From the NCBI GenBank assembly GCA_021018815.1, contig JAITYX010000040.1, forward strand, positions 5,386,501 to 5,450,500: 64,000 nt of DNA, written 5' to 3'. The notes under the pieces were generated by a model. That model searched no databases, was not told the origin of the DNA, and was given only the letters and a program-made list of their open reading frames with translations. This document shows, in pieces, positions 470-62,365 of this stretch. Origin of the DNA: Talinum fruticosum. Its lineage: Eukaryota; Streptophyta; Magnoliopsida; Caryophyllales; Talinaceae. The first letter of the stretch is position 1; each line of letters begins with the position of its first letter. Made by a program: the position numbers and the translations under genes.

Positions 470-700
470 GGAGATTGTACTTAAGCCCTTTGACAAAGTA
501 GACTGGGTTGACTAAGTCATTTCCTTGACCAATCTGTCCAATCCCAACTATCTTGCCCTTACTCGTTGTCTCTAAATGTGACTTTTCCTCCCTTTAAATC
601 TTCTAACTTTGAGAAGTGTTTTTAATCTCTATACATATGGCGTGAGCAGCCACTCGTCTAAGTACCGGTGATCCTTTCGTTTATGAGTCACCCGCAAAAC
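470..700 (-). pseudogene. Sir-A left copy: aspartic protease, broken at the catalytic motif
   Basis: Minus-strand remnant of the copia protease with the family's GCSRH segment, a degraded KGGKVTFGD-like stretch and a VYFVKGLKYNLLSIS-like end. The codon expected for Ser of the D-S-G active site reads CGAG instead of CAG (652-656 on plus, seen as CTCG), which shifts the frame exactly at the active site. Other copies show the same site as CAG, CGG or CGAG. Upstream of the protease (about 700-1290) is the basic gag-protease linker containing an IWVPK-like motif. Confidence 0.7.
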
Positions 701-1289
701 AAAAACAAACTAACCCTTCTCACTTCCTTTTACAAACCCAATAACTCCCATTATTGTGGTCCTTTTTTAGGAAGAGCACTTTGGGAACCCAAATTTGAAT
801 GATTTTGGATCTGGTTTGATTCCGAGTCTTCATTCTAGAAAACTGAGTCCGTGACTATTTTCTTTGAAAATCCTTTCTTTTGTAAATAGGTGGAGAAGGC
901 TTTTTCCTGTAAACTGGTCTAGGCTTAGTCCTCTTTTCATGAGAGTGAATAGGACCGTGCTCAGCCTTCCCGAACTTCACAGCTTCGGAGTCGGCTTTGA
1001 AAAAATCGGAATAGGAATTAGATTCCTCTTCAGCATTGTAACCAAGACCTTCTTTTCTGAATGAGACACACTCGGAGCCTAGTAAAAGATTATGGTTTTT
1101 CCGACCTTAAGTGAGTTTTAAAACCAGATCTTGAGACTCATTGAGCTTCCATTTCCGTTGCTTATTCTTTGTTCCGAGTGACTCGGACTTAGTCTCATTA
1201 TCTTAGCACTGGTCTTGAGTACCTTTAGATTTTGTCTCAAGTTTTCTTAACTTATTTTTCAAAACATTACTCTCAGCAGTAAGAGACTC

Positions 1290-2144
1290 AAGTTGTTATT
1301 TGAAGTTTGAAGAGTTAGAATTGGACTTTTCTTCCAAAGCAAAAATATATCCAACTAAATCAACTTAAGAGAACTTAAGGAAGTATTCAATTACCTCCTA
1401 AGGACTTGTCTCCTCAATATTTGACTTGTCATTATCTTACTCGGATTCAACTTCGAGTCCGTGAGTGCATAAGACACTTCAAGTAATCAAAATCATCTTC
1501 TTCGGATGAGTCGTCATCACTCCAGGTAGCCATCATAGCCTTTTTCTTCTTTCTCGTTCTTTTTTCTTCTTTCTGTCCTTCTTTCTCTTTGGACGAGTCC
1601 TTGACTATGTGCTCCTTGCTGCCACATTCAAAGCAACCAGGGTTCTTAGTTAAAGATAACTTTTAAGGGATGAGTATTTGCCTTTCCTCGTCCTTCTTAT
1701 CTTTCTTGTAAAACTCTTCCTTTAGCCTCTTTTGCCACTTCTTGTACTTCATCATTTTTTGAAGCTTCGTTTAATGAGTGCCAAGGGATCCTCTTCTAAT
1801 TCTAAGGAGCTCGGACTTTGACGTCCGCTTTCGAGGCCTTCAGCGCAATGTTTGTTTTGGTGCCGACCTCAGCATCCTCTTCTTCCAGGTGAATCTCATG
1901 AGTAAGTAACTTCTCAATGAGCTCGTCTAGCTTCGGTTAAGAAACATTTTGAGCCTCTTCAATGGTTGTCGTCTTGGGACCCCATTTTCTCTTTGGTAGA
2001 CTTCTCGAATTTTTCTGACCATTTCCTCGTGTGAGATCTTTCTACCTAGAGACTTGAGATTATTAGTAATCTCAGTGAACCCAACGATACATCCGAGAGA
2101 TGTTTTCTTCGGCTCCATTCTGAACAACTTATACTTATGAAGAT
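1290..2144 (-). pseudogene. Sir-A left copy: C-terminal half of gag with zinc knuckle
   Basis: Minus-strand gag fragment. The 1927-2127 part reads FTEITNNLKSLGRKISHEEM, the UBN2-type copia gag core. The nucleocapsid knuckle at about 1605-1640 reads CFECGSKEHIVKD, but the last Cys codon is lost to a frameshift (ggaCGAGtcc on plus where other copies suggest ggaCAGtcc). An acidic Ser/Asp/Glu tract follows (about 1490-1530). The fragment ends abruptly at 2144 where Sir-B is inserted; the N-terminal half resumes at 12506. Confidence 0.8.
2140..2144. repeat. Target-site duplication of Sir-B, left copy (AAGAT)
   Basis: AAGAT precedes the Sir-B 5' LTR and AATAT (12501-12505) follows its 3' LTR. Removing Sir-B and one copy rejoins the minus-strand gag in the order seen in uninterrupted copies (tatgaagatattgactta). 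One mismatch separates the two copies. Confidence 0.85.
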
Positions 2145-2270
2145 TGAAGACTCAAGTTTTGACTCTAAGTCATTCTGAATATTACATGAAGACTTAGGTT
2201 TTAATTCTAAGTCATTCTGAATATTACATGAAGACTCATGTATAAATCATATCTCTCTTAAGTTTTGATT
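2145..2270 (+). repeat. 42 bp tandem repeat at the LTR 5' end (three units)
   Basis: Units start at 2145, 2187 and 2229, each opening TGAAGACT; the first two end ATTACA exactly 42 bp later and the third runs into unique LTR sequence. The Sir-B 3' LTR has two such starts (11011, 11053). Because each unit begins like the LTR terminus, the true LTR end is repeated internally. Confidence 0.85.
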
Positions 2271-3678
2271 CCAAGTCATTCCGAGCACCATAGAAACTCT
2301 TATCTAAGTTTTCATTTGTTTCGATCGACTCGTAAAGCGCCTTATTGCATATCGCCTTTATCGGTGTTTCGACTCACTCAAACATCACCCAAAACTATCG
2401 CTTGCTCAAATAATTTCTCTAACACTCTTATTCCGAGTACTCGATCGTGTATTTCAACGCAAAAAGAATTACATCGTTAATTCTTTATTCTAAGTCAGTT
2501 TATTTCCTTGAGAATTATTTGACCATATCAAGTTGTTATACTCGATATTTTTACACTCTTTACTTGATCGGCTTAGGATTGACTATAGATGGAATTTGAG
2601 TATATTGAATATTACACTCAGAAAATTCCATTCCTTTAGGCCAAATATAATTCAACATTTAATTACTTGGATTTAATTATTATCTCGTGCTTAATCTTGG
2701 ACCAAAGTATTGTTATACTTTGAGAACCAATGTGGTTTGGTTTTGTAGCTTATTCAAACGAGGCTAATTTATTTTTGAATTACAAAAGCAACCGGCTTCT
2801 AGCCGTTAAACACCAGCAGACAAGTTTTACCTACTTCTAAACATGGCTCGGACATTGTGTCGGGGTTATTTGTTTCCAAAACTGGAAAACTCCAACTCTA
2901 GGCCTAACAGCTTGTTTCCACATCAGTTTTCAGTCACCACCAAGTGATTGGACCATCTTTTGGAGCCAAGAGCCGTTGCACAACATTCACATCCCAACGG
3001 ATCTTTTCCGAGTGACTCGGAATAGCGATTCATAACGACTAGTGAAGACTTCGTCCGGAACCAAGACTCAACGGTCACTCTGCCTGGTTGGCTATAGATA
3101 GAAGCCACTCCACAAGACTAGAAGGTTGTTGAAGAGATTGTTGGACTGTATTTATTATTTAACTAATTATTGTTCTCATTCTTACTTAATCTTTTATTTA
3201 CAACTCGAAGTCCGTATTTAATATTTTCCGAGTTGTAAAGAAAGTCTTGTAATCAGTTACACTCTTTTCTTACTTTCTAAGTAAGGTCCCTTAACTGAGT
3301 TGTAAGGGTTAACTCAGCTAAATTGTCCCCGATTGTAAAGGTTACCTCGGTCAGGAAATAGTAGATCGGATAAGGGAACTTTTGAGTCTAGGAAAATATT
3401 GTAAGGAATTATTTAAGGGAGAAATTCTGGTTGAGTCGGTCCTCTCGTATTTAGCGGATTCAAAATAGTGGATTTGACTTGCTTCTTAGATTAGAACTAT
3501 CCGTAGTTTTCCGCCCCGGGAGGGTTTCCTCGTATATCTATGTGATTACTTTTCTAAGTCCAATCTAGACTTAGATTCTCGGTAATGTGTCTGTATTGCT
3601 GCAAAAATTGTTTAATTTTCTTCATCACCTTATTCACCCCCTCTAGGGTGACTTAAACTCTCCAGGAGCAAACTTTCA
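2145..3678 (+). repeat. Sir-B 5' LTR
   Basis: Begins TGAAGACTC and ends CAAACTTTCA directly before the PBS. The core promoter box at 3093-3100 reads TATAGATA where the sister LTR has TATAAATA (11911-11918), so the 5' promoter has probably weakened. The 3' end has the family's conserved block (ttcacccc, then ctctagggtgactt). It is 44 bp longer than the 3' LTR because of an extra 42 bp repeat at its start. Confidence 0.9.
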
Positions 3679-3680
3679 AT

Positions 3681-3692
3681 TGGTATCGAGCC
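3681..3692 (+). other. Sir-B primer-binding site (tRNA-iMet type)
   Basis: TGGTATCGAGCC lies 2 bp after the 5' LTR. The plant initiator-tRNA-Met PBS is TGGTATCAGAGCC; this copy matches except that CAGAG is read as CGAG. The same variant is present in four other PBS copies in the window. Confidence 0.8.
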
Positions 3693-3736
3693 TAACCTTT
3701 CAAGAGGATCTCACCATCCAAAGGTATAAAGATCGG

Positions 3737-5230
3737 ATGGCTCGAACAATGGAGAATTCGATGAAGGAAGATCATTCACCGCACCATGAAAGTTAAAAGG
3801 GTTAAACTTTGCCCATTGGAAGAAGATGATGGAATGTTTCTTGATGGACAACGATGAAGATATTTGGAACATCATCCATGCAGGTAACTACATTCCAATG
3901 AAGATGGAGAATGCAACTCTTGTACGTAAAGCCAAATCAAAGTTCACCACTGAGGAGACCGAGAAATTTAGAAATAATTTCAAAGCTATGAACACACTAA
4001 TGTGTGCCATTAGCACTGTAAGAATACAAGAGGGTCTCAGCCTGTGACATAGCTAAAGTGGTGTGGGATACTCTTGTCAACACCTATGAAGGAACAAGCC
4101 AAATGAAGCAGGCGAAGATAAGTCAATATCTTCATAATTATGAGTTGTTCAAGATGGAGCCGAAAGAAAGCATCACTCAAATATATGTTCGGTTCACCGA
4201 GATTACCAATAATCTCAAATATATGGGTAGAAGGATTTCTCACGAAGAAATGTCCAAAAAGATTTTGAGAAGTCTACCAAAGAAGAGATGGGTTCCTCAG
4301 GTGACAACCATTGAAGAAGCTCAAAACCTATCTCAACTAAGGCCGGACGAGCTTATTGGCAAGGTACTCACTCATGACATTCATCTACGAAAGAGGATGC
4401 GGATGTCGGTACCAAAACAAATATTGCGCTGAAGGCCTTAGAAAGCGGACGTGAAAGTTTGAGCTCTTCGGAATCGAAGAGGATCTTATGGCACTCACAA
4501 CCCGTGGCTTCAAGAGAACGATGAAATACAAGAATTAGGAAGATAGGCCAAAGAATGAGTTATACAAGAAATATAAGGACAAAAAGGTAAAATATACTTC
4601 TCCTTCAAAGTTATCCTTATCTAAGAACTCTGTTTGCTATGAATGTGGTAGCAAGGAGCACATAGTAAGAGACTATCCCAAGAGAAAGAATGACGAGAAA
4701 GAAAAAGGCTATGATGGCTACCTGGAGTGATGATGACTCATCCGAAGAAGATGACTCAGATTACTCAAAGTGTCTTATGGCACTTACGGACTCGGAAGCC
4801 GAATCCGAGTCGACAACGAGGACTTAGATATTGATGAGGTAGTTGAATACTTTCTCAAATTTTCAAAAGTTGATCTAGCACGATATATTTTCACTTTGGT
4901 AGAAAAGTCCAATTCGGACTCGTTCTAGTTCAAACAATAACTTGAGTCTCTTATTGATGAGAACAATGCTTTGAAAAATGAATTGGAAAAACCGAGACAA
5001 AATCTGAAAGAACTTAAGAACAAGTACTCAAGAATATGAGACTATGTCCGAGTCACTCGAACAGAGAATGAGTAATCGAAATGAAAGCTCAATGAGTCTC
5101 AAGAGCTTCTTTTGAAATTCACTCAAGGTTAGAAAGCTCTTAGTGTGTCTTCTTCAGGAAAGAAGGACTTGGTTTCAATGAAGAAGAGGAATCAAAATCC
5201 TATTCTAATCTTTCAAAAGGATTCCGAACC
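3737..5230 (+). pseudogene. Sir-B gag, with gag-protease linker
   Basis: Starts at ATG 3737 (MARTMENS), 58 bp after the LTR, in a frame that stops after 18 codons. Gag then resumes in other frames. 3826-4047 holds MMECFLMDNDEDIWNIIHAG. 4058-4432 holds the UBN2-type core YELFKMEPKESITQIYVRF, then LRSLPKKRW. The CCHC knuckle at 4635-4676 reads CYECGSKEHIVRDY, with Tyr replacing the last Cys. An acidic DDSSEEDDSD tract and a coiled Leu/Glu/Lys stretch follow. Gag would form the particle and bind RNA. At least three frame breaks. Confidence 0.8.
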
Positions 5231-5529
5231 GTAAAGTTCGGGAAGGTTGAACATGGTCCCATTCATACAAATGAAGAAAGGACTAAGCCAAAACCAGTTT
5301 ATAAGAAAAAGCCCTCTCCTACCGTTTACAAAAGAAAATATTTTCAATTGAAAGAGACACGGACTTAGTTTTCTCGGAAGGAAGACTCGGAATCGGACTC
5401 GAGCCAAAATTATTCAAATTTGGGTTCCCAAAAGTGTTCTTCCTCGGAAAAGAAACATAGTAAAGGAAGTTACTGGGTTCGTACGAGGAAGTGAGAAGGG
5501 TTAGTTTGTCTCTGTCTTGCAGATAACTC

Positions 5530-5900
5530 GGAAGAAGAAGAAAGGTCATGGGTACTTAGACGAGTGGTTGCTCACACCATATGTCGAGAGATTCAACACT
5601 CTTGTCTCGAGCTAGAAGATCCGAAAGGAGGAAAAGTTACTTTTGGAGATAACAACAAAGGTAGGATAGGAGGGATTGGCAAAATTGGTGAAGGAAACAA
5701 CTCAATCAGCCCAGTCTACCTTATCAAAGGACTCAAGTACAATCTCCTTAGCATTTCCCACCTATGTGACAAAGGTCAATAGGTAATGTTCAATCAAACC
5801 AATTGCTACATCTCCGATGCAGTCACTAAAGAGACTAAGCTATCAGTGTCCGACGTTAGGTAATACTTACGTTCTTCCTCTCTCGATTCTAGTTAGAATT
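5530..5900 (+). pseudogene. Sir-B aspartic protease, frameshifted at the active site
   Basis: The frame at 5564-5782 contains KGGKVTFGDNNKGRIGGIGK and VYLIKGLKYNLLSISHL, the usual body and C-terminal part of a copia protease. The tract before it would encode Y-L-D-[S]-G-C-S-H-H-M, but the Ser codon region reads gaCGAGtgg (5561-5564) instead of gaCAGtgg, putting the catalytic Asp out of frame with the rest. A TAG closes the frame at 5780. Expected to process Gag-Pol. Confidence 0.75.
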
Positions 5901-5920
5901 TATCTTGTTTAAAAGCATCC

Positions 5921-6480
5921 GTGATCGATGATTCATGGACATGGCATCGTACACTAGGTCATATCAGCATGCATACAATCAAGAAACTTGCATCTCATAG
6001 ACTTGTTAGGGGTTTACCTAATTGTGCCTTTAAGAAAGATAAATCTATGAGGCATGCACAAAGGGTAAGCGGGTTAGATCATCTTTCAAGCCACTCAAAA
6101 CCGTATCTACATCCAAAGTGCTTGAATTGCTTTATATGGATTTGTGTGGTGAAATTCCTCCGAAAAATCTTGGAGGTAAATCGTATGTATTTGTTGTTAT
6201 TGATGATTTCTCATGATTTACTTGGGTTTGTTTTCTTAAGAATAAGAATGAAGCCTTCAAAGAGTTCATTAAGCTCTGCAGAAAAATTCAAGTGGAGTAT
6301 CGGACTCAGATTAGAAGGATTCGAACTTACCATTGAAGGGAGTTCAACTACTCAAAATTTGCAGACTTCTATGACAAGAATGACATCTCTCACAACTTCT
6401 CTACACCAAGAACTCCTCAATAGAATGGAGTACTGGAGAGAAAGAACGGAACTCTTGAAGAAATAGGAAGGACTACAATG
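5921..6480 (+). pseudogene. Sir-B integrase: HHCC domain and decayed catalytic core
   Basis: 5921-6050 encodes WTWHRTLGHISMHTIKKLAS and GLPNCAFKKDK, the GAG-pre-integrase zinc-binding region. A frameshift follows, and core motifs continue in a second frame (LLYMDLCGEIP, GGKSYVFVVIDDFS, later NGVLERKNGTL with the catalytic Glu). At 6480 the sequence jumps from the segment after that Glu to ggtaaggagcatcgtacc. About 0.2 kb found in Sir-D (about 33450-33640) is missing, so part of the integrase C-terminal region is deleted. Confidence 0.75.
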
Positions 6481-7080
6481 GTAAGGAGCATCGTACCAAG
6501 TTTGATGCTAGGTCGGATGAAGGTATATTTCTAGGTTATTCATCTCATAGCAAAGCTTATCTTGTTTTTAACAAAAGAACTAAGAAAGTGGAAGAAAGTA
6601 TCCACGTTGTTTTTGATGAGATTGATCTTGGCAGGATAAGTGAGTTCACATTCTCAAATCTCAAACTTAACAGAGATGAAGACGACCTTGTCGAAGCCGA
6701 GCTTAGAAAAAGTCAAAATAGAATTATTGAGGCAATTGAGAATGAAGCAACTCATAATGTTATGACTCAAACTGAACAAACTAAAGAGCCAGCTTAGAAT
6801 GCTCGAAGAACAAGTCAATGAGACTCAAGCAAGATCAACCAACCGAAGATCAGCCTATCCAACCAACAAACTTGGTAAACCAAAGGACAAGTAAAGCTTT
6901 CAAATATGCATCCATCCACCCACCTGAAATCATACTTTTATACATCAACAATGGGGTAAGAACTCGATCTTCTTTGCATAATCTGTGTGCATTTTCTTCA
7001 TTCATATCATTAACTCGAACCCGAAAATGTTCTAGAAGCCCTAAATGAATATGAATGGGTAGAGGCCATGCAAGAAGAGC
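6481..7080 (+). pseudogene. Sir-B integrase C-terminus and integrase-RT linker
   Basis: Continues after the deletion with FDARSDEGIFLGYS, FNKRTKKVEESIHVVFDEID and an acidic linker (6588-6797), ending in a stop where other copies read on. 6818-7048 has the next linker part in another frame (SKAFKYASIHPPEI). This is the region between integrase and RT of copia polyproteins and carries no catalytic residues. Confidence 0.7.
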
Positions 7081-7864
7081 TCAATCAATTTGAAAGAAAC
7101 CAAGTCTAGACTCGACCGAAAGACCATCTAATCGCCCGACCATAGGAACCAAATGGGTTTTCAAGAACAAACTGGATGAGGAAGGGTTGGTAGTCGAAAT
7201 AAGGCTAGACTTGTTACCCAGGGTTACAATCAAGAAGAAGGAATTGATTGTGGGGAAACCTTTGCACTTGTTGCTAGGTTGAGGTCCTATTAGCATTTGC
7301 ATCTAGCATGAATATCAAACTTTATCAAATGGATGTCAAATGTGCCTTTCTGAATGGTTTTATTCAAGAAGAAGTTTATGTTAAGCAACCCCCTGGATTC
7401 GAAAACTCGAAATTTTCAAATCATGTTTTCAAGCTGCAAAAGGCTTTATATGGTCTTAAACAAGCTCCGAAAGCTTGATATGAAAGACTAAGAAGTTTCT
7501 TGGTTGAAAATAATTTCAAAAGAGGTCGATTGACAAAACTCTTTTCATAAAAACCAAGGGGAAAGATTTTCTTATTGCTCATATTTATGTTGATTATATC
7601 ATTTTTAGAGCTACTAATGAAACTCTATGTCAAGAGTTTTCTAAGTTAATGAGACAAGAGTTCCATATGAGTATGATGGGAGAACTCAACTTCTTTCTTG
7701 GTCTACAAATCAAACAACACAAGGATGGCATTTATGTCCATCAATCCAAGTATACCAAGGAACTTTTGAAGAAGTACAAACTACGAGATGTGAAGCATGT
7801 AACAACACCTATGAGTAACAGTTTGAAACTGCACTCGGACGAAAAAGGTAAAGCTATAGATTAG
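7081..7864 (+). pseudogene. Sir-B reverse transcriptase with mutated YVDD (YVDY)
   Basis: Conserved blocks in order: [48 protein letters not shown], then the catalytic box at 7586-7597 reading YVDY (TAT GTT GAT TAT) in place of YVDD, then MMGELNFFLGLQIKQ and KYTKELLKKYKL. The second catalytic Asp is lost. Several stops and frameshifts interrupt the N-terminal half. A TAG replaces the Gln codon in AIDQK at 7862. Confidence 0.85.
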
Positions 7865-8529
7865 AAACTCTAGAGAGGTATGATCGGATCTCTATTGTAT
7901 CTCACATCTAATAGGCCGGATGTCATGTTCGGTGTCCGCCTTTGAGCAAGATTCTAAGCTAATCCAAAAGAATCATATCTCACTCCGGTGAAGAGAACTT
8001 TAAGATATCTTGCAGGGACTCACAATCTTAGTCTAAGTTTTCAAAAGACTTAGAACCGACTCACAATGGGTACTCGGATGTTGATTATGCTGGATATAAA
8101 GTTGATAGAAATAACACATTAGGAGCTTGTCAATTTCTAGGTCAATCTCTCATCTCCTAGCACTCAAAGAAACAAAACTCTATTGCTCTATCAACTCGCC
8201 AAGGCTGAGTACATTGCAGATGGAGCCTAATGTGGATAGACTCGTGGATTAAGCAACACTTGAAGGATCTACGGCTATCAATCAAATCTATCCCAATCAA
8301 GTGTGACAATGAGAGTGCAATCAACATTACAAAAGAATCTGGTTCAAGCACTAAAAAAACAAAGCATATTGAGGTTAAGTATCATTTTCTAAGAGACCAC
8401 TCCGAGAAAGGTGATATTGAACTTGAATTCATTCCTACGAAATATCGGTTAGCCGATATTTTCACTAAACCACTTAGTAAGGATCAGTTTTACTTTATTA
8501 GGAATAAGCTTGGTATGATTAATACATGA
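7865..8529 (+). pseudogene. Sir-B RNase H and end of pol
   Basis: The N-terminal half is broken into frames around 7880-8230. The C-terminal 99 codons (8230-8529) are open: SIPIKCDNESAINITKESGS, KTKHIEVKYHFLRDHSEKG, LADIFTKPLSKDQFYFIRNK, ending LGMINT and TGA at 8527. The first half includes GMIGSLLYLTSNRPDVMF-like sequence. RNase H removes the RNA template during cDNA synthesis. The end is conserved with Sir-D (35666). Confidence 0.85.
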
Positions 8530-9088
8530 TTATATGATTTATTAAGTGATTATCCTTACATAATTATGTATTATGTGATTTTAATAACAAATGGATCAGT
8601 TGACAGAGTGAGACCGAGCTATGAGTTCTTGGTTTTCTAAGTGTTCCGAGTTACTCGGAAAAACATATTGAGTCGGACTCGGCTTTTGAGCAAAATGGAC
8701 ATCAATCTTATGGGATTATCTCTAAATAAATAGAGAATTTCATAAATTTTTTTCAAAAAGTCTTTCTTATCTCTCTCTCTCTCTCTCTCTCTCTCTATGC
8801 CACGCACTTTGATCGGAGAAAACTAGCCCTTAAAAGAAAGTCTGCTGGAATTCTAGCCATTGGAGAGCAAAACGTCACACCAGCCTCGGAGTACTCGTTT
8901 GGTATTCCGGTAAGAACGAAGGTCGAAGGTCATTTCTTTTCACTATAAATAGCATACCTTTACCTTCATTTCTTTACTTTACTCACTGCCTTCTTGATCT
9001 CTACTCTAAGCATCTCTGCTCACTCATATTCTCTCTCTCTCCGAATTCTAAATGTTTTCTTCTTTCTCTTTGTTTGTCGAAAATCATC
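8530..9088 (+). promoter_or_regulatory. Sir-B pol-extra ORF spacer with internal TATA box
   Basis: Non-coding spacer. It holds a (CT)n microsatellite (8771-8796), a TATAAATA box at 8944-8951, and a second CT-rich tract (about 9030-9043) before the extra ORF. The same arrangement of TATA-like box, CT-rich leader and ORF about 150-260 bp downstream recurs in Sir-C and in the right half of Sir-D. I infer a separate promoter for the extra ORF. No transcript evidence is available here. Confidence 0.5.
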
Positions 9089-10611
9089 ATAACTAAGCGA
9101 GGTTCAGGACCTAAATTTTTTGAGTCGGCTACCAAAAAGCCCTCGCGTCAAAAACACTCAAGAAGGAACCTCCAATCCTTCTAAAATCTTTATCATCCAA
9201 CATTTCACCTTAGATGATAAATTCTTCCCAACCACCTCTTTCTCGTGGTTGTAGCACATCGAAAGCACCGGCGTGTACAAGTATCCGTGCTTTAGTGAAT
9301 TCATTTACCCGTAACTCGTTACCGAGTTCTATTTAAACATGTCCTACTCGAGGGAATCATTAGCTCCAGTGGTTCAAGAGAAGGTTGTTTGTGTGAACCT
9401 CTCTCTTCTTCATAGACTTTTCAAAGTCTCTTCCTTTTTCTCAATTGCAATACCATACCTTTTATGGAGATTGCCGATGAATTCTTTGAAAAGTATGCTA
9501 AGGAAGTTCCTGAGTCACGAAAGAATATCTCAGTGACTCGGATGCAGATCGAGGCAAGATTGCTCTGTTTCATTTTGATGAGGACCTTTTTCGCTCATCA
9601 TTTCAAAGAAGAGAATCCAAACTCCAAGATTCTCAAAGCTTTGTTCGATATCTTAGAAGGCTATGATGTAGACCTCTTTCCTTCTATTATTGAGCGGATG
9701 GCTTCGTGCCACCTCAATCAAAGAAATCTGCTCCAAACTCCAAGATTCTCAAAGCTTCTCGAGTACGGATACCAGGAAGTTCAACCTGGTGTCCGGGTAC
9801 ATAGGTTTGAGTTGAAACATCCCTCACCCCCTCCCACTCGGACTCGGACTCCTCTAGCACTTCCACCTCCTTCGCTGGTCCCTCTACTTCTCTACCACCT
9901 TCTCCAGCCTTCTCATCGCTGTGTTTACCGAGCGGATACACAAACTTGCTTCGTGTTCGAAGAATTTTAGACCACTCGTGCTCTCTCAAAAATGTCCTTC
10001 AAAGCCTGGTTATCAATTAGAAGACCGGGCAGTCCTAGATTCGGGAGAACTAGGATCTAATGATCGAGCTCAAGGCCATCATCAAGGAACAGTGCGAGCA
10101 GCTCCAACTCCTCCAAGAACGAAGATCGAACGCTCCCGAGGACTCGGATACCACCGATACTTCTAAGGAGTCCTCCAATCCAGCTAAGTCCACCTCAGCC
10201 GAGGTACAAGAGGAGACCGAGGAAGCGAGTTGAGGAGGAAGTTCAGCCGAGCAAGAACAAGCCGAGAAGAAGGAAGAGGAGGACAAAGAAAAAGGAGAGG
10301 TCACTCAACCCGAGGGCCAAGGTGCCAAAGAACCGGAACCGGAGCCGATCTCCTCGGATCATGCTCTAAGTGGATCGGAATTCGTGAAGTTGGTCACCCA
10401 AAGAAGCTATACTGTAAGCACGGCCCACTCGTATCTTTGAGGAAGATGAGCTCGAGGATGATGTGCCCTTGGTTCCCAAAACCAGGACAAAGCACATATC
10501 AAATATCCTAGTCGTTGCAGCCGCCCTGTTCCGCCACTTCTACACAAGCGTACAGGTGTAGGCGCACTCGCTCGTCCCTCTTCCTCTCGACAAGCAAGCC
10601 CCCTCTTTTAG
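9089..10611 (+). pseudogene. Sir-B extra 3' ORF (unknown function), decayed
   Basis: About 500 codons in several frames. The start codon reads ATA where other copies have ATG. Core (9464-9760): EIADEFFEKYAKEVPESRKN, VTRMQIEARLLCFILMRTFF, KALFDILEGYDVDLFPSIIE, then GYQEVQPGVRVHRFE, a Pro-rich PPPTRTRTPLALPPPS linker, a Glu/Lys-rich low-complexity tail, and a closing DDVPLVPKTRT-like segment. The layout resembles, from memory, the Pfam family called putative plant transposon protein. SIRE elements carry an env-like ORF in this position, but I see no clear signal peptide or membrane segment. A 26 bp duplicated block (9616-9641, 9732-9757) replaces part of the core. Confidence 0.65.
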
Positions 10612-11010
10612 TTCATTTTAGTTTTTTTTTGTCCAACATCAATTGTACTCTTTTGCTATTTTCTTTCCTCGTTTTTAATGAAATGCTAGGGGAGAAAATA
10701 TAGAAAACTTGATGTTGTGTTTAGGGGAGGTCACCCTCTTTCGAGCAATGAATGAAAATTTTTTTCTCAAACAGACTTGCTTCTTGAGTTATAGTTTTGC
10801 TTTTCCGCTCTAATACAATCTGTTCATTTCCTTGCTCTAATTTATTATCTCGCATAACTATTATGAGTTATGATATGATCCGAATTTCTTTTAAGTATTA
10901 GTCTGTCACTCTCGCTTTGATACGCTCCGATCATTGAAAATGAAAACTCATGTTTCACACTAACAAGTTTCTATCTTAAGTAAGGAATGCCTTTCATAAA
11001 AAGGGGAGAT
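10612..11010 (+). other. Sir-B 3' untranslated region and polypurine tract
   Basis: Non-coding, T-rich, with no ORF. It ends with the polypurine tract AAAAAGGGGAGAT at 10998-11010, directly before the 3' LTR, which would prime plus-strand DNA synthesis. The preceding GGAATGCCTTTCATNAAAA context is shared by every PPT of this family in the window. Confidence 0.85.
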
Positions 11011-12500: not shown

Positions 12501-12505
12501 AATAT
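12501..12505. repeat. Target-site duplication of Sir-B, right copy (AATAT)
   Basis: Pairs with AAGAT at 2140-2144 (one mismatch). Sir-A gag resumes immediately after it with attgacttatcttc. Confidence 0.85.
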
Positions 12506-17141: not shown

Positions 17142-17155
17142 AATCCCCCACACTT
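17142..17155 (-). other. Ath-1 polypurine tract
   Basis: The minus strand reads AAGTGTGGGGGATT immediately before the 3' LTR, a typical Athila-group PPT. It defines which LTR is 3'. Confidence 0.85.
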
Positions 17156-48859: not shown

Positions 48860-48888
48860 GGTGAATGAAGAGAAACGAGAGAGAATAC

Positions 48889-48922
<34 letters not shown>

Positions 48923-52079: not shown

Positions 52080-53182
52080 TAGGGATCGGGCAACAAGTCG
52101 GGCCGAGCCGGGTCGGGGTCGGCCCATTACTATAAAGGGTCGAGCCGGGCCAGGAAAAATAAATGGGTTCGGCTGGGTTATGGGCCAGCTGACCACGACT
52201 CGCCCATGGGCCGGAGCTAAACATGAATTGATGTTAGTGCTTGGTTCGGTAGCAAAATTTTCTAAATCTAGATACAAATTACTATAATCACCGGAATCCA
52301 GGCAACCAAAGCATAAAGTAGTAGCAGAACATCTGTGCTTGAAACAACTTGTAAGGCAACGAGTTCCCAATTTTTGACCCATGGCAAATTCCATTAAAGA
52401 CATAGCTAATATAAACTGGTAATCGCTCGGAAAAAGTATATACCGTAGTTTGCTACCCTACATGATATTAAACTCTTGTTTCTCAATAAAAAGTTTTATA
52501 TAAACACAAAATCAATGAGATCACATAACCCTGAAACACTGTTATATTGAGTGGATAGTAATTCGTTCAATCGATAAAATTTTTAAAAGTTGTTATCAAA
52601 AATTCGAGTTTAACGTTGACACCTTCTACCGAAATTATAAGGAAAATAAGTTTTTTTTTAAATCCTGTTTGTGCAAGAAAAAGAAAAACAGATAGTAACA
52701 CATTGATGAAAAAGAAAAAAATGATGATTAGTGGTGGTGGTGGTGGAAAAATCTACATTTAAAAGCATTTTTCGAGGGAAAAGAAAAGCTACAATTAATA
52801 GTAGTAATAATGATGCAATTTGAAGTGAATTAAATAGGGAGATTAATTACTTTAGACCTCCGAGTCGCAGACAAATACACAGAACACGGTGATGACAGGT
52901 GTAAGGTTATGATTGGAGCGAGAAAATTAACGAAGTAGAATAATTAATTAAGCTTTAATGGGAGCCGAGCTTAGAAGTAAATTACCGAAACACGATGGAC
53001 GGGCGTGCAAAACATGTTGACCCTTTTTGCTTTGACCCACTAATGGCCCGCGGCTGACCCTTTAATGGTCTATCTTCACATGACCCTTTTAGCCCGGCCC
53101 TTTTATTACTAAACTTGGATTTCGACCCTTTTTTTGCTCGGCCCTGCTGCCCAATGGGTACCCTGCCCATTGGCCAGCCCTA
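52080..53182. mobile_element. hAT-1: short non-autonomous hAT-type DNA transposon
   Basis: 1,103 bp inserted in Sir-A integrase. Ends are inverted and hAT-like: TAGGGATCGGGCAAC (left) and TAGGGCTGGCCAAT (right, minus strand), followed by GC-rich subterminal CGGGCC/GGCCCG motifs. The flanks tgtatagt and tgtactga resemble a decayed 8 bp target duplication. No transposase ORF is present. The centre is A/T-rich with a GTGGTGG run near 52732-52746. An ATG-started minus-strand run (52403 down to about 52220; MEFAMGQKLGTRCLTSC, then SATTLCFGCLDSGDYSNLYL) may be captured host sequence, but I cannot identify it. Confidence 0.75.
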
Positions 53183-53310
53183 TGTACTGATTAGGTAATC
53201 CCCTAACCAATTCATGAGATGCAAGTTTCTTGATAGTATGCATGCTGATATGACCTAATCTATGATGCCAAGTCCATGAGTCATCATTCACGGATACTTT
53301 CAAACAAGAT
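53183..53310 (-). pseudogene. Sir-A right copy: integrase HHCC region, N-terminal part
   Basis: Minus strand VNDDSWTWHHRLGHISMHTI, KKLASHELVRGLPNQ, then hAT-1. The two zinc-ligand His residues are present here; the two Cys are on the other side of the insertion (near 52050). Confidence 0.85.
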
Positions 53311-53690
53311 AAATTCGACTTGAACCCGATAGAGGAATAGTGTATGTGTTACCTAATCTCGGACCCGAGAGCTTAGTCTCTTTTGTGATTACATCAGAAA
53401 TGTAGTCGTTGGTTTGAGTGAACATTACCTCTTGTCCTTTGTCATGTAGTCGAGAGATGCTAAGGAGATTGTATTTCAGCCCTTTGACAAGATAGACTGG
53501 ACTAACCGAGTTGTGTCCTTCACCAACCTTTCTAACCCCTACTATCTTGCCTTTGCTATTATATCCAAATGTGACATTTCCTCCTTTTAGATCTTCCAAT
53601 TCGGAGAAGAGTCTTGAATCTCCTCACATATGGCATGAGCAACCACTGTCTAAGTACCAGTGACCTTTCTTCTTCTTCGACTTACCTGCA
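53311..53690 (-). pseudogene. Sir-A right copy: aspartic protease with intact D-S-G
   Basis: 53300-53599 is a clean 99-codon run: EDLKGGNVTFGYNSKGKIVG, GHNSVSPVYLVKGLKYNLLS, ISRLHDKGQEVMFTQTNDYI. The catalytic segment just upstream reads Y-L-D-S-G-C-S-C-H-M-like, with CTG on plus at 53646-53648, that is CAG on the sense strand. It is the only one of six copies with the expected codon context. A frame break separates the motif from the rest. Confidence 0.8.
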
Positions 53691-55492
53691 AGACAGAAAC
53701 AAACTAACCCTTCTCACTTCTTCTTACAAACCCAGTGACTCCCTTTACTTGCGCTACTTTTATGAGGAAGAGCACTCTTGGGAACCCAGATTTGAATAAT
53801 TTTGTGTCTATTCCGATTCCGAGTCTCACTTCTAAAAACCGAGTCTGTGTCTCCTTCTTTTGAAAATCTTTTCTTTTGTAAACAGGTGGAGAAGGATTTT
53901 TCTTGTAAACTTGTCTAGGCTTAGTCCTCTTTCCATTCTTATCAATGGGACCATGATCCGTCTTCCTGAACTTTATAGTTACGGAATCGATTTTGAAAAG
54001 ATTTGAATTGGAATGAGATTCCTCTTCTTCATTATAGCCAAGTCCTTCTTTCTCGAATAAGACATACTAAGAGCCGAGTAAAAGATCAAGGTTTTTATGA
54101 CCTTGAGTGAGTTTTAAAACAAGCTCTTAAGACTTATTGAGCCTCCTTTTCATTTGCTCATTCTCTGTTCTAAGTGATTCAAACTCAGTCTCATTTTCTT
54201 GAGTACTGGTCTTAAGTACTTTCCAATTTTGTCTCAAGTTTTCTAACTCATTTTTCAAAACGTTGCTCTCATTAGTAAGAGACTCGAGTTTTTCTTTGAA
54301 CAGTGAAGAGTCGAAATTAGACTTTTCTTCCAAAGTATAAATATATCTAGCCAAGTCAACTTTGAAGAATTTGAGAAAATATTTAATTACCTCCTCAATA
54401 TCTAAGCTCTCATTGTTTGACTCATATTCAGCTTTTGAATCTGTAAGTCCCATAAGACACTTTGAGTCGTCGGAATCATCTTCTTCGGATGAGTCGTCAT
54501 CACTCCGAATAGCCATCATAGCCTTCTTCTTTCTGTCCTTCTTTGTTTTGGGACAATCTTTGACTATGTGCTCCTTGCTACCCATTCAAAGCAACTAGAG
54601 TTCATAGATAAAGATAACTTTGAAGGGATTAATATTTACCTTTTTGTCCTTCTCATCCTTTTTATAGAACTCATCCTTTAGCCTCTTTTCCCACTTCTTG
54701 TATTTCATCATTCTCTTGAAGCCGCGGGCTATGAGTTCCATAGGATCCTCTTTTAATTCCGAGGAGCTTAGACTTTCACGTCCGCTTTCGATGCCTTCAA
54801 AGCTATGTTCCGTTTGGTGTTGACCTCGGCATCTTCTTCTTCCGAGATGAATCTCGTGAGTAAGTAATTTCTCAATAAGCTTGTCTGGTCTAAGTTGAGA
54901 GAAGTTCGAACTTCTTTAATTATTGTCACCTTGGGACCCCATCCCTTCTTTGATAGAGTTCTCATAATCTTTGTGGACATTTCTTCGTGAGAGATGTTTC
55001 TACCAAGAGATTTGAGATTATTAGTAATCTCTATTAACCGAACATACATCTAAGTGATGTTTTCTTACGGCTCCATCTTGAACAACTCGTACTTATGAAG
55101 ATATTGACTTATCTTCACCTGCTTCACTTGGCTTGTTCCTTCATAGGTTTTGATAAGAGTGTCCCACACCTCTTTGGCTATGTCACAGGCTGAGACTATG
55201 TTGTATTCTTCTATACTAATGGCACACATCGGTGTGTTCATAGCTTTGAAGTTCTTTACGAACTTATCCGTCTCTTCGGAGGTGAATTCGGATTTGTCTT
55301 TAGGCACGGGGATTCCATTCTTCGTCTTCATTGGAATGTAGTTGCTCGCTTGGATGATGTTCCAAACATCTTCATTGTTGTCCATCGGGAAACACCATCA
55401 TCTTCTTCCAATGTGCAAAGTTTGACCCTAAGAACTTTGGTGGTCGCAGTGGATGATCTTTCTTCATCGAACACTCCATTGTTTTGAGCCAT
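53691..55492 (-). pseudogene. Sir-A right copy: gag and gag-protease linker
   Basis: Start ATG 55492-55490. 55065-55385 reads MDNNEDVWNIIQASNYIPMK, VSACDIAKEVWDTLIKTYEG and QYLHKYELFKMEP. 54768-55049 has LIEITNNLKSLGRNISHEEM. 54127-54585 is a clean 152-codon run beginning GSKEHIVKDCPKTKKDRKKK, an acidic SSEEDDSDDSKCL tract, then a coiled region (SLTNESNVLKNELENLRQNW). The first two Cys of the knuckle lie just upstream in a shifted frame. Most complete gag in the window. Confidence 0.83.
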
Positions 55493-55537
55493 CCGATCTT
55501 TACCCCTTCGGATGGTTAAATCCTTTTGGAAAGGCTA

Positions 55538-55549
55538 GGCTCGATACCA
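55538..55549 (-). other. Sir-A right copy: primer-binding site
   Basis: Minus strand TGGTATCGAGCC, 2 bp from the 5' LTR; same CAGAG-to-CGAG variant. Confidence 0.85.
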
Positions 55550-55551
55550 AT

Positions 55552-56979
55552 TAAAGGTTTGCTCTTAGAGAGTCTAAGTCATCCTAGAGGGGGTGAGTAG
55601 GGTGATGAAGAAAATTAAATAATTTTTGCACCAATAAAAACTAAAAGCGATTCCGAGTCTAGAATGGACTTAGAAAGGCAATAACACGGATATACGTGGA
55701 AACCCTCCTAGGGTAGAAAACCATGGACAGTACTAATCCAAGCACCAAGTCAAATCCACTATTTTGAATCCACAAAATACATAGGACTCGACTCAACCAA
55801 AATTGCTCCCTTAAATAATTACTTACAATGTTTTCCTAGAATCGAAGTTCCCTTATCCGATCTAGTACTTCCTGACTGAGGTAACCTTTATAATTAGGGA
55901 CAAGCTGAGTTGAGTTAACCCTTACGACTCAGTCAAAGGACTTACCAAGAAAGCAAGAGAAGTATGTAATTGATTACAATACTTTCTTTACAACTCGAGA
56001 GAATATTAAATACGGAATTGGAGTTGTAAGTAAAACATTGAGTAAAAATGAATCCAATTATAGGTTCAACAATAATTCCGGAAACCTTCAAGTCTTGCAA
56101 ACTGGCTTCTATTTATCGACACCCAGCGAGTGACCGTTAAGGCTTGTTTATGGACTGAAGTCTTCATTAGCTGTTATAACGGCTATTATGAGTTACTTAC
56201 AAAAGATCCGTTGGGATGTGAACGTTGTGCAATGGCTCTTAACTCCAAAATATGGTCCAATCACATGGTGGTGACTGAAAGCTGCGATGGAAACAACCGT
56301 TAGGCCTAGAGTTGGAATTTTCTAGTTTTGGAAACAAATAACCACGACACGGTGTCCGAGCCTTGTCCGAAGTAGCTAAAACTTGTTTGCTTTGGTGGTT
56401 AACGGCTAGAAGCCGGTTGCTTTTGTAATTCAAAAATAGATTAGCCTAGTTTGAATAACGTATAAAAACAAATCACATAGGTTCTCAAAGTATAACAATA
56501 CTTTGGTCCAAGATTAGGTACAAATAATAATTAAATCCGAGTAATTAAATGCTTAATTATCTTTGACCTAAAAGAATGGAATTTTCTGAGTCTAATACTC
56601 AATATACTCAAATTCCATCTTGAGTCAATCCTAAGTCGATCAAGTTAGAGAGAGTAAAATATCGAGCATAACAACTTGATCCGGTAAAATAATTCTCATA
56701 GAAATATACTAACTCGGAATAAAGAATTAACGCTGTAATTCTTTTTGCGTTGAAATACAAAGTCGGTGCTCGGGCAAAGTATGTTAGAGAAATTATTTGA
56801 TCATGCGATAGTTATGAGTGATGTCCGAGTGAGTTAGAAACACCAGTGACAAAGATATGTAGTAAGGCGCTTTACGAATAAGTCGAACATAATGAAAACT
56901 TAGATAGGAGTTTCTAAAGAATACAAAATGACTTAGAATCAAAACCTAAGAGAGATAGAGATTTATACCTGAGTCTTCA
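55552..56979 (-). repeat. Sir-A 5' LTR
   Basis: 1,428 bp; on plus TAAAGGTTTGCTC (terminal TG mutated to TA) to CTGAGTCTTCA at 56979. The promoter box reads TATTTATCG near 56110, so it is mutated as in the middle LTR. Beyond 56979 the sequence is no longer Sirevirus. Confidence 0.88.
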
Positions 56980-58615: not shown

Positions 58616-58618
58616 TTA

Positions 58619-59062
58619 ATAAAGCTTAATGTTCATGCTAAATGCAAATGCTAACAGGATTTTGATTGCCTCAATCCTAGCAACAGGTGTAAAGGTTTCC
58701 CCAGAATCAACTTCTTCTTCTTGATTGTAACCCCGGGCAACAAGTCTAGCCTTATTTCTTACTACCAACCCTTCATCATCTAGTTTGTTCTTGAAAACCC
58801 ATTTGGTTCCTATGATTGGGTGATTAGATGGTCGTTTGGTCAAAGTCCAAACTTGGTTTCTTTCAAATTGATTAAGCTCTTCTTGCATGGCCTCTACCCA
58901 TTCAGGTTCATTTAGGGCTTTTAGTGCATTTTTGGGTTTAGTTAATGATATGAATACAGAAAATGCACACGAGATCATGCACGGAAGATTGAGTTCTTAC
59001 CCCACTATTGATGTCGGAAAGTATGTTTTTAGGTGGGTGGCTAGATGTATATTTGAAAGCTT
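58619..59062 (-). pseudogene. Sir-F reverse transcriptase, N-terminal part
   Basis: A clean 120-codon run to 58616: [105 protein letters not shown]. The copia RT fold begins here; it breaks right before the QMDV motif. No defect is visible in this stretch except E-V-D where the family has G-I-D. Confidence 0.9.
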
Positions 59063-59420
59063 TACCTGTCCTTTGATTTATCAAGTTTGTTGGTTGAATA
59101 GTCTGATCTTCGGTTGGTTGATCTTGCTTGAGTCTTATTGACTTGACCTTCGACATTCGAGCTGGCTCTTGAGTTTGTTCGATCCGAGTCATAACATTCA
59201 CGAGTCGCCTTAGTAATTCTGTTTTGACTCTTTCCGAGCTCAGCTTCAGCAAGGTCGTCTTCATATATGTTAAGTTTATGATCCGAGTATGTGGACTCAC
59301 TTATCCTGCCAAGATCAATTTCATCAAAGACAATGTGGATACTTTCATCCACTTTGTTAGTTCTCTTGTTAAAAACACGATAATCTTTGGTATGAGATGA
59401 GTAACCCGAAATATACCTTC
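59062..59420 (-). pseudogene. Sir-F integrase-RT linker
   Basis: 59062-59352 reads MDESIHIVFDEIDLGRISES, TYSDHKLNIYEDDLAEAELG and KSQNRITKATRECYDSDRTN; the continuation in another frame has TNLINQRTGKAFKYTSSHPP. Frame shift near 59190. Confidence 0.8.
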
Positions 59421-60210
59421 ATTTGACCTAGCATCAAACTTCGTTTGATGCTACTTACCATTATTGTGGACAAAGCATTTACATCCAAATGGTCTGAAGT
59501 AGGAGATGTTGGGTTTCTTTTCCTTGTAAAGCTCGTAAAGAGTTTTTTTCAAGATGGGTCCGATGAGGCATTTGTTGAGTGTGTAATTTCTTTGTGTTGA
59601 TTGCCTCAACCCGGAAATAGTAAGGTAGGTCATTTTCAATCATGATAGTCCTTCTTATTTCTTTAAGAGTTCTGTTCTTTCTCTCTACTACTCCACTTTA
59701 TTGGGGAGTTATTGGTACAGAGAAGTTGTGAGAGATGCCATTCATGTCACAAAAGTTTGCAAATTCTAAGTAGTCGAACTCCCTTCCATGGTTAGTTCGA
59801 ATCCTCCTTATCCGAGTCCGAGACTCTACTTGAATTTTTCTTGTAGAGCTTAGTGAACTCTTTGAAGGCTTCATTCTAGTGAATCATGAGAAATCATCAA
59901 CAACAACAAGTACATACGATTTACCTCCAAGACTTTTCATAGGAATTTCACCACACAAATCTATATGAAGCAATTCAAGCACTTTAGATGTAGACATGGT
60001 TTTGAGTGGTTTCAAATATGATCTAACATGCTTACCTTTTGTGCATGCTTCATAGATTTTATCTTTCATAAATGCACGAGATAGGTGGACCCCTAACCAA
60101 TCTATAAGATAAAAGTTTCTTCATAGTATGCATGCTAATATGACCTAGTCTACGATGCCAAGTCCATGAATCATCATTCACGGATGTTTTCAAACAAGAT
60201 AAATTCTATC
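59421..60210 (-). pseudogene. Sir-F integrase
   Basis: C-terminal part 59451-59639: TLNKCLIGPILKKTLYELYK, EKKPNISYFRPFGCKCFVHN. Glu motif near 59690 (NGVVERKNRTL). 59884-60069: MKDKIYEACTKGKHVRSYLK, STSKVLELLHIDLCGEIPMK, SLGGKSYVLVVVDDFS. HHCC start WTWHRRLGHISMHTMKK near 60130-60170. A short deletion near 59880 joins DDFS to the following core. Several one-base breaks. Confidence 0.8.
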
Positions 60211-60560
60211 TTGAATCGGAGAGAGGAATAGTATAGGTGTTACCTGACCTCGAGACTTGAGAGCTTAGTCTCTTTGGAGACTGCATCATAAATGTAGCAG
60301 TTAGTGCAGGTGAACATTACCTCTTGACCTTTGTCACACAGACTAAGAAATGCTAAGGAGATTGTACTTGAGTCCTTTGACAAGGTAGACAGTGGCTGAC
60401 TGTGTTGTTTCCTTCACCAATTTTGCCAATCCTTACTATCTTGCCTTTGCTGTTATCTCCAAATGTGACCTTTCCTCCTTTCGGATCTTCTAGCTCAAAG
60501 AAGAGTATTGAATCTCCTAACATGTGGCGTGAGCAACCACTGCTCTAAGTACCAATGACC
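60211..60560 (-). pseudogene. Sir-F aspartic protease
   Basis: The minus strand has LEDPKGGKVTFGDNSKGKIV-like sequence and LKYNLLSIS. The catalytic segment reads gagcagtgg (plus CCACTGCTCTAAG, 60536-60549) where Sir-A has gacagtgg, so the active-site Asp codon is disrupted. Confidence 0.7.
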
Positions 60561-62365
60561 TTTCTTCTTCTTCCGAGTTATCCGCAAGACAGAAACAAAC
60601 TAACCCTTCTCACTTCCTCTTACAAACCTAGTAACTCCCTTTACTTGTGGTCCTTTTCGAGGAAGAGCACTTTTGGGAAACCAGATTTGAATAATTTTGG
60701 GTTCAGTCCGATTCTAAGACTTCCTTCAAGAAAACTAAGACTGTGTCTCTTTCTTTTGTAAACAGGAGGAGAAGGCTTTTTCCTGTAAGCTGGTGCAGGC
60801 TTAGTCCTCTGTTCATTTGTATGAATGGGACCATGCTCAGCCTTTCTAAACTTTACGGTTACGGAATCAGTTTTGAAAAGATTAGAATAGGATTTTGATT
60901 CCTCTCTTCATTGAAACCAAGTCCTTCTTTCCTGAAGGAGACACACTGAGAGCCTAGAAGCATATCAAGGTTTTTCGACCTTGAGTGAATTTCAAAACAA
61001 GCTCTTGAGACTCATTGAGCTTTCTTTTCAGTTGCTCATTCTCTATTCTAAGAGACTTAGACACTGTCTCATTTGCTTGAGTACTGGTCTTAAGTTCTTT
61101 CATATTTTGTCTCATTTTTTTAACTCATTTTTCAAAACCTTGCTCTCATTAGTGAGAGACTCAAGTTGTTCTTTGAACTGGAACGAATTAGAATTGGACT
61201 TTTCTTCCAAAGTGAAAATATATTGGGCTGGATCAACTTTTGAGAATTTGAGAAAGTATTCAACTACCTCATCAATACCCGAGTTCTCGTTGTCTAACTC
61301 AGATTCGAGCTTCGAGTCCGTAAGTTCCATAAGACACTTTGAGTCATCAAAATCATCTTCTTCGAGATGAGTCTTCATCACTTCAAGTAGCCATCATAGC
61401 CTTCTTCTTTCTGTCCTTCTTTCTCTTGGGACAATCTTTGACTATGTGCTTGCTTGCTGGCACATTCAAAGCAACTAGAGTTCTTAGATAAAGATAACTT
61501 TGAAGGGGAGGAATATTTACCTTTTCTTTCCTTTATATCTTTCTTGTAGAACTCATCCTTTGGCCTCTTTTCCCACTTCTTGTATTTTATCATTTTCTTG
61601 AAGCCTCGAGCTATGAGTGCCATAGAATCCTCTTCGATTATGAGGAGCTCGGACTGTCATGTCTGCTTTCTTAGGCCTTTAGCGCAATGTTCCTTTTGGT
61701 GCTAACCTCGATATCTTCTTCTTGCAAATGAATCTCGTGGGTAAGTAACTTCCCGATAAGCTCGTCTGGTCTTAGTTGAGAGAGGTTCCGAGCTTCTTCA
61801 ATTGCTGTCACTTTGGGACCCTATCTCTTCTTTGGTAGACTTCTCATAATCTTTCTGGACATTTCTTCATGAGAAATCTTTCTACTCGGAGATTTGAGAT
61901 TATTGGTAATCTCGGTGAATCGAACATAAATCTGAGTAATGTTTTCTTCGGCTCCATCTTGAACAACTCATACTTATCAAGATATTAACTTATCTTCGCC
62001 TGCTTCACTTGGCTTGTTCCTTCATAGGTGTTAACAAGAGTGTCCCACACCTCTTTGGCTGTGTCATAGGCTGAGACTGTTGTATTCTTCTATGCTAATG
62101 GCACACATCAATGTGTTTGAAGTTCTTTCCGAACTTATCGGTCTCTTCGATGGTGAACTCAGATTTGGCTTTTGGCACGAGTAGTTCTATTCTCCCTCTT
62201 CATTGGAATGAAGTTGCTCGCTTAGATGATGTTCTAAACATCTTCATCGTTGTCCATCACGAAACACTCCATCATCTTCTTTCAATGTGCAAAATTTGAT
62301 CCTTTAAACTTTGGTGGTCCGGTGGATGACCTTCCTACATCTAACTCTCCATTGTTCTGAACCAT
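60561..62365 (-). pseudogene. Sir-F gag and linker
   Basis: Start ATG 62365-62363. The N-terminal and central parts (61800-62365) are in short frames, with ITNNLKSPSRKISHEEMSRK-like sequence. 61378-61623 holds SLSKNSSCFECASKQAHSQR: the first two Cys of the knuckle, then a 4 bp insertion shifts the frame. 61112-61381 holds the acidic and coiled C-terminal region (DSKCLMELTDSKLESELDN, SLTNESKVLKNELKK). A CGAG site is at 61363-61366. Confidence 0.78.

What the first reader, a model, noticed from the sequence alone, without database searches (positions are those of the whole stretch)
652..61366. Recurrent CAG to CGG/CGAG changes at homologous sites break frames and motifs across all copies
Six copies of the protease D-S-G site read CAG (53646, Sir-A right), CGG (28301 Sir-C; 32532 Sir-D), CGAG (652 Sir-A left; 5561 Sir-B) and a third variant (60540 Sir-F). 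The acidic gag tract reads CGG at 1503 and 54486 but CGAG at 44317 and 61363. The knuckle in Sir-D has CGAG for CAG, and the last knuckle Cys in Sir-A left and Sir-C is lost the same way. Sister LTRs of Sir-D show ccagcagac against ccaacgaga. Deamination of a methylated CHG site gives TAG or CAA, not CGG or CGAG, and independent insertion of the same base at the same codon in separate copies is unlikely. Plant transposons are heavily CHG-methylated, so I infer systematic consensus errors in long-read base calling at methylated CAG/CTG. If so, these elements are less decayed than they look.
Basis: partly seen in the sequence, partly recalled or inferred. Interest (0 to 1): 0.85.

Follow-up and report, generated by a model that had tools for sequence, protein, structure and literature searches.

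The report
Methylated CAG sites misread as CG
Many breaks in these plant jumping genes look like sequencing misreads at chemically marked CAG sites rather than real mutations, so old plant repeats in such assemblies can look more damaged than they are.

Summary
In self-alignments of the window, 913 aligned CAG face three forms that create CG: CGG (82), CG (25) and CGAG (12). The extra G after C occurs at CAG, hardly at CAA/CAC/CAT (12/913 v 1/7634). CGG behaves like a hidden CAG: it faces TAG and CAA, the deamination products of CAG, far more than CGT faces TAT. CG is 12-fold enriched at one-base length changes, other dinucleotides 3.0-4.4. Sister LTRs show 20 such changes in 136 CAG. Fetched relatives show the catalytic Ser and integrase Gln as conserved. 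Both strands are affected equally, against RNA editing. Limits: no reads were available, so platform and methylation are inferred; the youngest LTR element (15002-22370) is almost free of the pattern, perhaps for lack of CHG methylation. Real CHG deamination is also abundant, so the elements are only partly less decayed than they look.

The parts
1..2144 (-). copia internal piece (Sir-A left); protease site near 652 reads CGAG, acidic tract near 1503 reads CGG, last knuckle Cys codon split
   Evidence: CG-type share 0.54 (15 of 28 CG-type plus CAG sites)
2187..12501 (+). Sir-B, copia element with LTRs 2187-3679 and 11011-12501 (87.8% alike); protease site near 5561 reads CGAG
   Evidence: Pfam Retrotran_gag_2, gag_pre-integrs, SH3_retrovirus, RVT_2; CG-type share 0.55 (31 of 56)
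15002..22370 (-). young LTR element, LTRs 99.1% alike; nearly free of the pattern (3 of 72 CAG differ in CG type between sisters); strand from a weak gag match only
   Evidence: Retrotrans_gag match below cut-off
23465..28977 (-). copia internal piece (Sir-C); protease site near 28301 reads CGG
   Evidence: CG-type share 0.43 (15 of 35)
28978..44154 (+). Sir-D span with further nested pieces; sister LTRs 28978-30604 and 42533-44154 (93.7%); protease site near 32532 reads CGG; knuckle near 31567 has CGAG
   Evidence: CG-type share 0.58 (29 of 50) in 30605-36900
44155..46613 (-). gag-side piece and LTR (45123-46613), probably of Sir-C split by Sir-D; acidic tract near 44317 reads CGAG; knuckle Cys codon split near 44450. 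The partner LTR is 14264-15005 plus 22371-23126, interrupted by the young element
   Evidence: CG-type share 0.40 (2 of 5) in 44407-45122; assignment to Sir-C inferred from the layout
46646..56979 (-). Sir-A right; protease site near 53646 reads CAG, acidic tract near 54486 reads CGG
   Evidence: CG-type share 0.46 (17 of 37) in 46646-51450 and 0.38 (9 of 24) in 53190-55550
58616..62950 (-). Sir-F; protease site near 60540 has a different +1 form; acidic tract near 61363 reads CGAG
   Evidence: CG-type share 0.33 (13 of 39)

Best explanation
The window is a nest of plant LTR retrotransposons, mostly Ty1/copia. Much of the apparent decay at CAG/CTG sites is a systematic long-read consensus error. 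Proposed mechanism: the cytosines of CHG sites in silenced elements carry 5mC on both strands. A nanopore base-caller trained on DNA in which 5mC stands mainly before G (mammalian CpG) reads the signal of mC-A-G as C-G followed by what is left of the signal. This gives CGAG (+1), CGG (0) or CG (-1), depending on flanking bases. Native reads from the different molecules share the modification, so consensus does not remove the error. Shown here: the CHG specificity, the three CG-making forms, recurrence between sister LTRs, strand symmetry and flank dependence. Inferred: methylation of the sites, the nanopore platform, and the training-set cause.
For: Insertion of G after C: CAG>CGAG 12/913, CAA 1/3915, CAC 0/1472, CAT 0/2247 (pooled p 2e-11). 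CAG>CG is the most frequent of 18 unambiguous middle-base deletions, 25/913 against 237/33776 for the other 17 pooled; the next, GAG>GG at 2.1%, includes CGAG facing CGG. CGG faces TAG 124 times where the product of single changes gives 10.3, and CAA 79 times against 5.9. By distinct CGG positions 99/518 face TAG, against 15/418 for CGT-TAT plus CGC-TAC (p 3e-14). CG at one-base length changes is 12.4x its frequency, other dinucleotides 3.0-4.4x. CGA and CGG are at 1.09 and 1.06 of base-composition expectation while CGT and CGC are at 0.44 and 0.33 and CAG at 0.57. Sister LTRs: CAG>CGG 9/136 against 65/5458 for A>G after A, G or T and 12/830 for CAH>CGH. Relatives fetched as proteins: D-S-G in all 33 (of 241) in which the motif pattern was found; at the second Gln of TPQQNG (94 of 102 motif matches) four copies read CAG, TAG, TAA and CGG. 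Sense/antisense CAG>CGG 18/16 distinct sites. Precedent: for then-current ONT callers on one K. pneumoniae set about 70% of consensus errors lay in Dcm sites CCAGG/CCTGG, i.e. 5mC before A/T-G (PMC6591954, passages). Plant read accuracy rises with species-trained models and methylation is named as the likely cause (PMC9749173, passages).
Against: The young element 15002-22370 is almost free: 3/72 CAG of CG type between sisters against 17/64 in the four other LTR alignments (p 2e-4), and CGAG:CAG is 16:117 against 159:175 and 492:533 elsewhere; flank context does not explain it (0.116 v 0.122 and 0.119). An error tied to methylation would need this element to lack CHG methylation. PMC10473749 (passages) reports that transcribed copia elements of another plant lose CHG methylation, which would fit, but methylation was not measured here. 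Among copia elements with an LTR pair the share shows no trend with LTR identity: Sir-D 93.7% 0.58, Sir-C 93.8/89.6% 0.43 and 0.40, Sir-B 87.8% 0.55; this speaks against growth with age but only on three elements. The CGA-TAA pair is also raised (93 v 16.6) and is not fully explained; CG is also frequent at multi-base substitutions (35.9%). The form at 60540 fits none of the three outputs. Pairwise counts reuse sites, so p values are optimistic. No reads were seen.
Confidence: 0.88

Rival explanations
1. Real CpG decay: the elements once had CGG, and deamination gave CAG, TGG or TAG; the reader has the direction reversed.
For: CAG/CGG alone is ambiguous, and CpG decay is plainly present: CGT>CAT 16.1%, CGC>CAC 15.7%.
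Against: Cannot make CGAG or CG. Double decay CGN>TAN is 9.8% for N=G but 1.4% for N=T and 2.5% for N=C; for N=A it is 5.3%, in between. The outside proteins put Ser and Gln, not Gly and Arg, at the two motif sites checked.
Confidence: 0.04
2. A real mutational process aimed at methylated CHG that inserts or swaps a G after the methylated C, e.g. faulty repair after 5mC excision.
For: CHG specificity; the youngest element has few such changes, as accumulation with time would predict.
Against: Changes fall on the bases after the C rather than on the C; no such spectrum is known to me. No trend with LTR identity among three copia elements. The highly methylated Arabidopsis numt shows C>T at CpG (88) and CHG (87) among 235 such changes, and 44 indels against 425 substitutions (PMC9071559, passages).
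Confidence: 0.05
3. Inherited subfamily variants: CGAG and CGG copies descend from ancestors that already had them.
For: Some states are shared by more than one copy, e.g. CGAG at 44317 and 61363; no tree of copies was made.
Against: Sister LTRs differ in CG type at 20 of 136 CAG. Eighteen of 865 homologous site groups with three or more copies carry two different CG-type forms beside CAG, TAG or CAA. A broken protease site in five of six copies is hard to inherit.
Confidence: 0.02
4. RNA-level A-to-I editing before reverse transcription.
For: CAG>CGG is an A>G change.
Against: Sense and antisense are equal, 18 v 16 distinct sites; it cannot give length changes; no plant ADAR is known to me (recalled).
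Confidence: 0.01

Closest known systems
Dcm-site consensus errors of nanopore base-callers (Wick et al. 2019, PMC6591954; passages read)
   Same: 5mC in C(A/T)G context, unfamiliar to the model, gives errors that persist in the consensus.
   Different: Bacterial; the passages do not give the letters of the errors. Here the three CG-making outputs are read from one assembled window alone, in plant repeats.
Modification-mediated errors, Listeria (Chiou et al. 2023, authors recalled, PMC10687267; passages read)
   Same: Errors centre on fixed motifs, GCAGC and GCTGG, that contain CAG/CTG; amplifying the DNA improved genome quality.
   Different: Bacterial modification systems of partly unknown chemistry; checked with short reads.
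Lower base-call accuracy in plants without species training (Ferguson et al. 2022, authors recalled, PMC9749173; passages read)
   Same: Plant DNA methylation is named as a likely cause.
   Different: No site grammar; 'CHG' and 'CAG' have 0 occurrences in the main text.
CHG deamination in plant DNA (Arabidopsis numt, PMC9071559; passages read)
   Same: Same target sites; would give the TAG and CAA states seen here.
   Different: A real mutation, C>T.

Membership tests
Modification-mediated nanopore consensus error | Errors concentrate in a motif of a known modification (CHG) | tested here: met
   12/913 at CAG v 1/7634 at CAH for the G insertion; CG deletion form and CGG pairs likewise
Modification-mediated nanopore consensus error | Recurs at the same site in different copies without descent | tested here: met
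   sister LTRs 20 of 136 CAG; 18 of 865 site groups with two CG-type forms
Modification-mediated nanopore consensus error | Affects both strands of a symmetric motif | tested here: met
   18 sense v 16 antisense CAG>CGG
Modification-mediated nanopore consensus error | Absent where the DNA is unmodified | tested here: inconclusive
   young element nearly free, its methylation unknown; no gene region was examined as a control
Modification-mediated nanopore consensus error | Disappears in amplified DNA or accurate reads; platform is nanopore | not testable with these tools
   no reads, sample or assembly record; search of the own genome unanswered
Ty1/copia LTR retrotransposon | copia gag, gag-pre-integrase, RVT_2 reverse transcriptase, paired LTRs | tested here: met
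   Pfam matches above cut-off in Sir-B; LTR pair. The other copies were assigned by DNA similarity to Sir-B
Sirevirus genus | genus-specific LTR, PBS and env-like features | not tested

The most novel reading that the evidence does not exclude
The miscall works as a fossil methylome. Because the base-caller turns methylated CHG into CG, the share of CHG sites read as CG in a finished assembly reports CHG methylation element by element, with no signal data. On this reading the young element 15002-22370 lacks CHG methylation in the sequenced tissue while its older neighbours carry it.
Probability: 0.35. Interest if true: 0.6.

Novelty: new variant of a known kind. Interest (0 to 1): 0.5.

Why it matters
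If other plant assemblies were made the same way, counts of broken retrotransposons, LTR ages (length changes and A>G count as divergence), CpG content and frameshift calls in repeats are biased in one direction. The bias leaves a signature that could be screened for in an assembly without reads: CGG and CGA near expectation while CGT and CGC are depleted, and CG at one-base length changes.

Tried and rejected
Real CpG decay, RNA editing, inherited variants and a new mutational process were weighed as rivals. Viral contigs as a possible short-read control for copia DNA gave no relatives in 3 scans. The window's own genome could not be searched: the same request was sent six times and never answered. 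ARAGORN found no tRNA. In the listings of the other six, in passages of ten papers and in a term search of an eleventh that gave no hit, I saw no description of CHG sites being called as CG in plant assemblies; I read none of these papers whole, and most subscription papers are not in that library. A rise of the pattern with falling LTR identity was looked for among the copia elements and not seen.
Full report
What the window is. The 64 kb hold nested LTR retrotransposons. Sir-B (2187-12501) gives Pfam matches to Retrotran_gag_2, gag_pre-integrs, SH3_retrovirus and RVT_2, which makes it Ty1/copia. Relatives of its protease-integrase region that are listed with an organism are plants, e.g. Cajanus, Hibiscus, Theobroma, Trifolium, and Rfam finds a plant snoRNA. 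A younger element lies at 15002-22370 with LTRs 99.1% alike.

The observation. All ten listed protease and acidic-tract sites read as stated, as do the Sir-D LTR pair and the knuckle changes. The knuckle given to Sir-C is not in 28291-28990 but near 44450, in a piece that the layout suggests is Sir-C's other half beyond the Sir-D insertion. At the last knuckle Cys the copies show the unchanged codon, the CG-type form, and both deamination products.

Is it more than chance? I used all pairwise self-alignments at E up to 1e-10 and asked what stands opposite each trinucleotide when three flanking bases match on both sides. Opposite 913 CAG (both strands): CAG 314, TAG 120, CAA 101, CGG 82, AAG 30, CGA 27, CAT 27, CG 25, CGAG 12, CCG 10, the rest other forms. 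The G insertion after C is confined to CAG: 12 of 913, against 1 of 3915 CAA, 0 of 1472 CAC, 0 of 2247 CAT. CAG>CG is the top unambiguous middle deletion of 18, 2.7%, followed by GAG>GG at 2.1%, part of which is CGAG facing CGG. CGG>CGAG is the most frequent unambiguous insertion, 34 of 1261. CG stands at 382 of 1128 one-base length changes (33.9%; clusters of up to three columns) against 13.9% of single substitutions, 35.9% of multi-base substitutions and 7.7% of random columns; relative to its frequency that is 12.4 at the one-base length changes, while the other dinucleotides lie between 3.0 and 4.4.

CAG/CGG alone does not decide direction, because real CpG decay also links them. The double changes do. 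CGG faces TAG in 124 of 1261 and CAA in 79, against 10.3 and 5.9 expected from single changes; CGT faces TAT in 10 of 734 and CGC faces TAC in 5 of 204. TAG and CAA are what CHG deamination makes of CAG, so many CGG stand where CAG stood. Dividing CGG>TAG by CAG>TAG (9.8/13.1) and CGG>CAA by CAG>CAA (6.3/11.1) suggests very roughly that 57-75% of aligned CGG are of this kind; this is arithmetic, not a fitted model. The product expectation is too low in general: CGA>TAA is also raised, 93 v 16.6, and CAA-TAG 87 v 10.4, so the CGT and CGC comparison is the better control.

Independence. In five sister-LTR alignments (four elements; the LTR at 14264-23126 is split by the young element and gives two), 20 of 136 CAG face a CG-type form (CGG 9, CGA 6, CG 4, CGAG 1) and 11 face TAG or CAA. 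CAG>CGG is 9/136, against 65/5458 for A>G after A, G or T (p 7e-5) and 12/830 for CAH>CGH (p 0.001). That the pairs are sisters is inferred from the layout.

Direction from outside. Of 241 fetched relatives the protease motif pattern was found in 33, all D-S-G, with a pattern that would also have accepted T or G in the middle; TPQQNG was 94 of 102 matches. At that second Gln four window copies read CAG, TAG, TAA and CGG.

Mechanism. CAG>CGG is equal on sense and antisense strands (18 v 16 distinct sites), which argues against RNA editing. CG-type forms depend on the base before C (TCAG 69/317, CCAG 14/231) while deamination at the same sites does not (75/317, 65/231), as expected for a signal read in short words rather than for a mutation. 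Each output puts G after C, as a caller would do that knows 5mC mainly before G. PMC6591954 (passages) reports that default nanopore models performed poorly at Dcm sites CCAGG/CCTGG, which made about 70% of the errors of then-current ONT callers in one K. pneumoniae set. [quoted passage not shown] PMC10687267 (passages) links errors to the motifs GCAGC and GCTGG and reports better quality after amplification. That this assembly is nanopore-based is inferred; the homopolymer-length differences between the young sister LTRs (four of 13 difference clusters) fit a long-read consensus with residual errors.

Results against. The young element has 3/72 CAG of CG type between sisters, against 17/64 in the other four alignments, and little excess CGG or CGAG. 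Flank context does not explain this. It may lack CHG methylation, as PMC10473749 (passages) reports for transcribed copia elements in another plant, or the changes may be real and grow with age. Against age: the CG-type share is 0.58 in Sir-D (LTRs 93.7%), 0.43 and 0.40 in Sir-C (93.8 and 89.6%) and 0.55 in Sir-B (87.8%), no trend, but on three elements only. The form at 60540 and the CGA-TAA excess are not explained. Pairwise counts reuse sites, so p values are guides only; counts of distinct positions are.

Consequence. CG-type states (CGG, CGAG, CG) are 33-58% of CG-type plus CAG sites in the eight internal blocks. Real decay is also heavy: TAG states outnumber CG-type states in all eight blocks, most narrowly in 30605-36900 (32 v 29). 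So the elements are less broken than they look at CHG sites, but they are not intact.

Noticed in passing
window 19552-19655 +: A full-length match to plant C/D-box snoRNA snoR71 (45.4 bits, cut-off 40) lies inside the young LTR element, on the strand opposite to its weak gag match.
   Followed up: no
window 16640-16760 and 21870-21990: CAG-rich tract in the young LTRs; within about 40 bases the second LTR has several CG-type changes that the first lacks, while neighbouring CAGs agree.
   Followed up: partly
window 36306-37654 and 41363-42185: The three longest stop-free stretches of the window (201, 211 and 241 aa) lie at 36.3-37.7 kb, with more at 41.4-42.2 kb, in the CG-richest bins. The four + strand ones scanned have no Pfam match; the two on the - strand were not scanned.
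   Followed up: partly
window, all CAG: CAGC is over-represented (o/e 1.71) and shows the fewest CG-type forms of the four following bases, as if a C after CAG protects from the miscall.
   Followed up: partly
window 57781-58362: Local near-tandem self-similarity at offsets of roughly 95 and 145 bases, between copia pieces.
   Followed up: no
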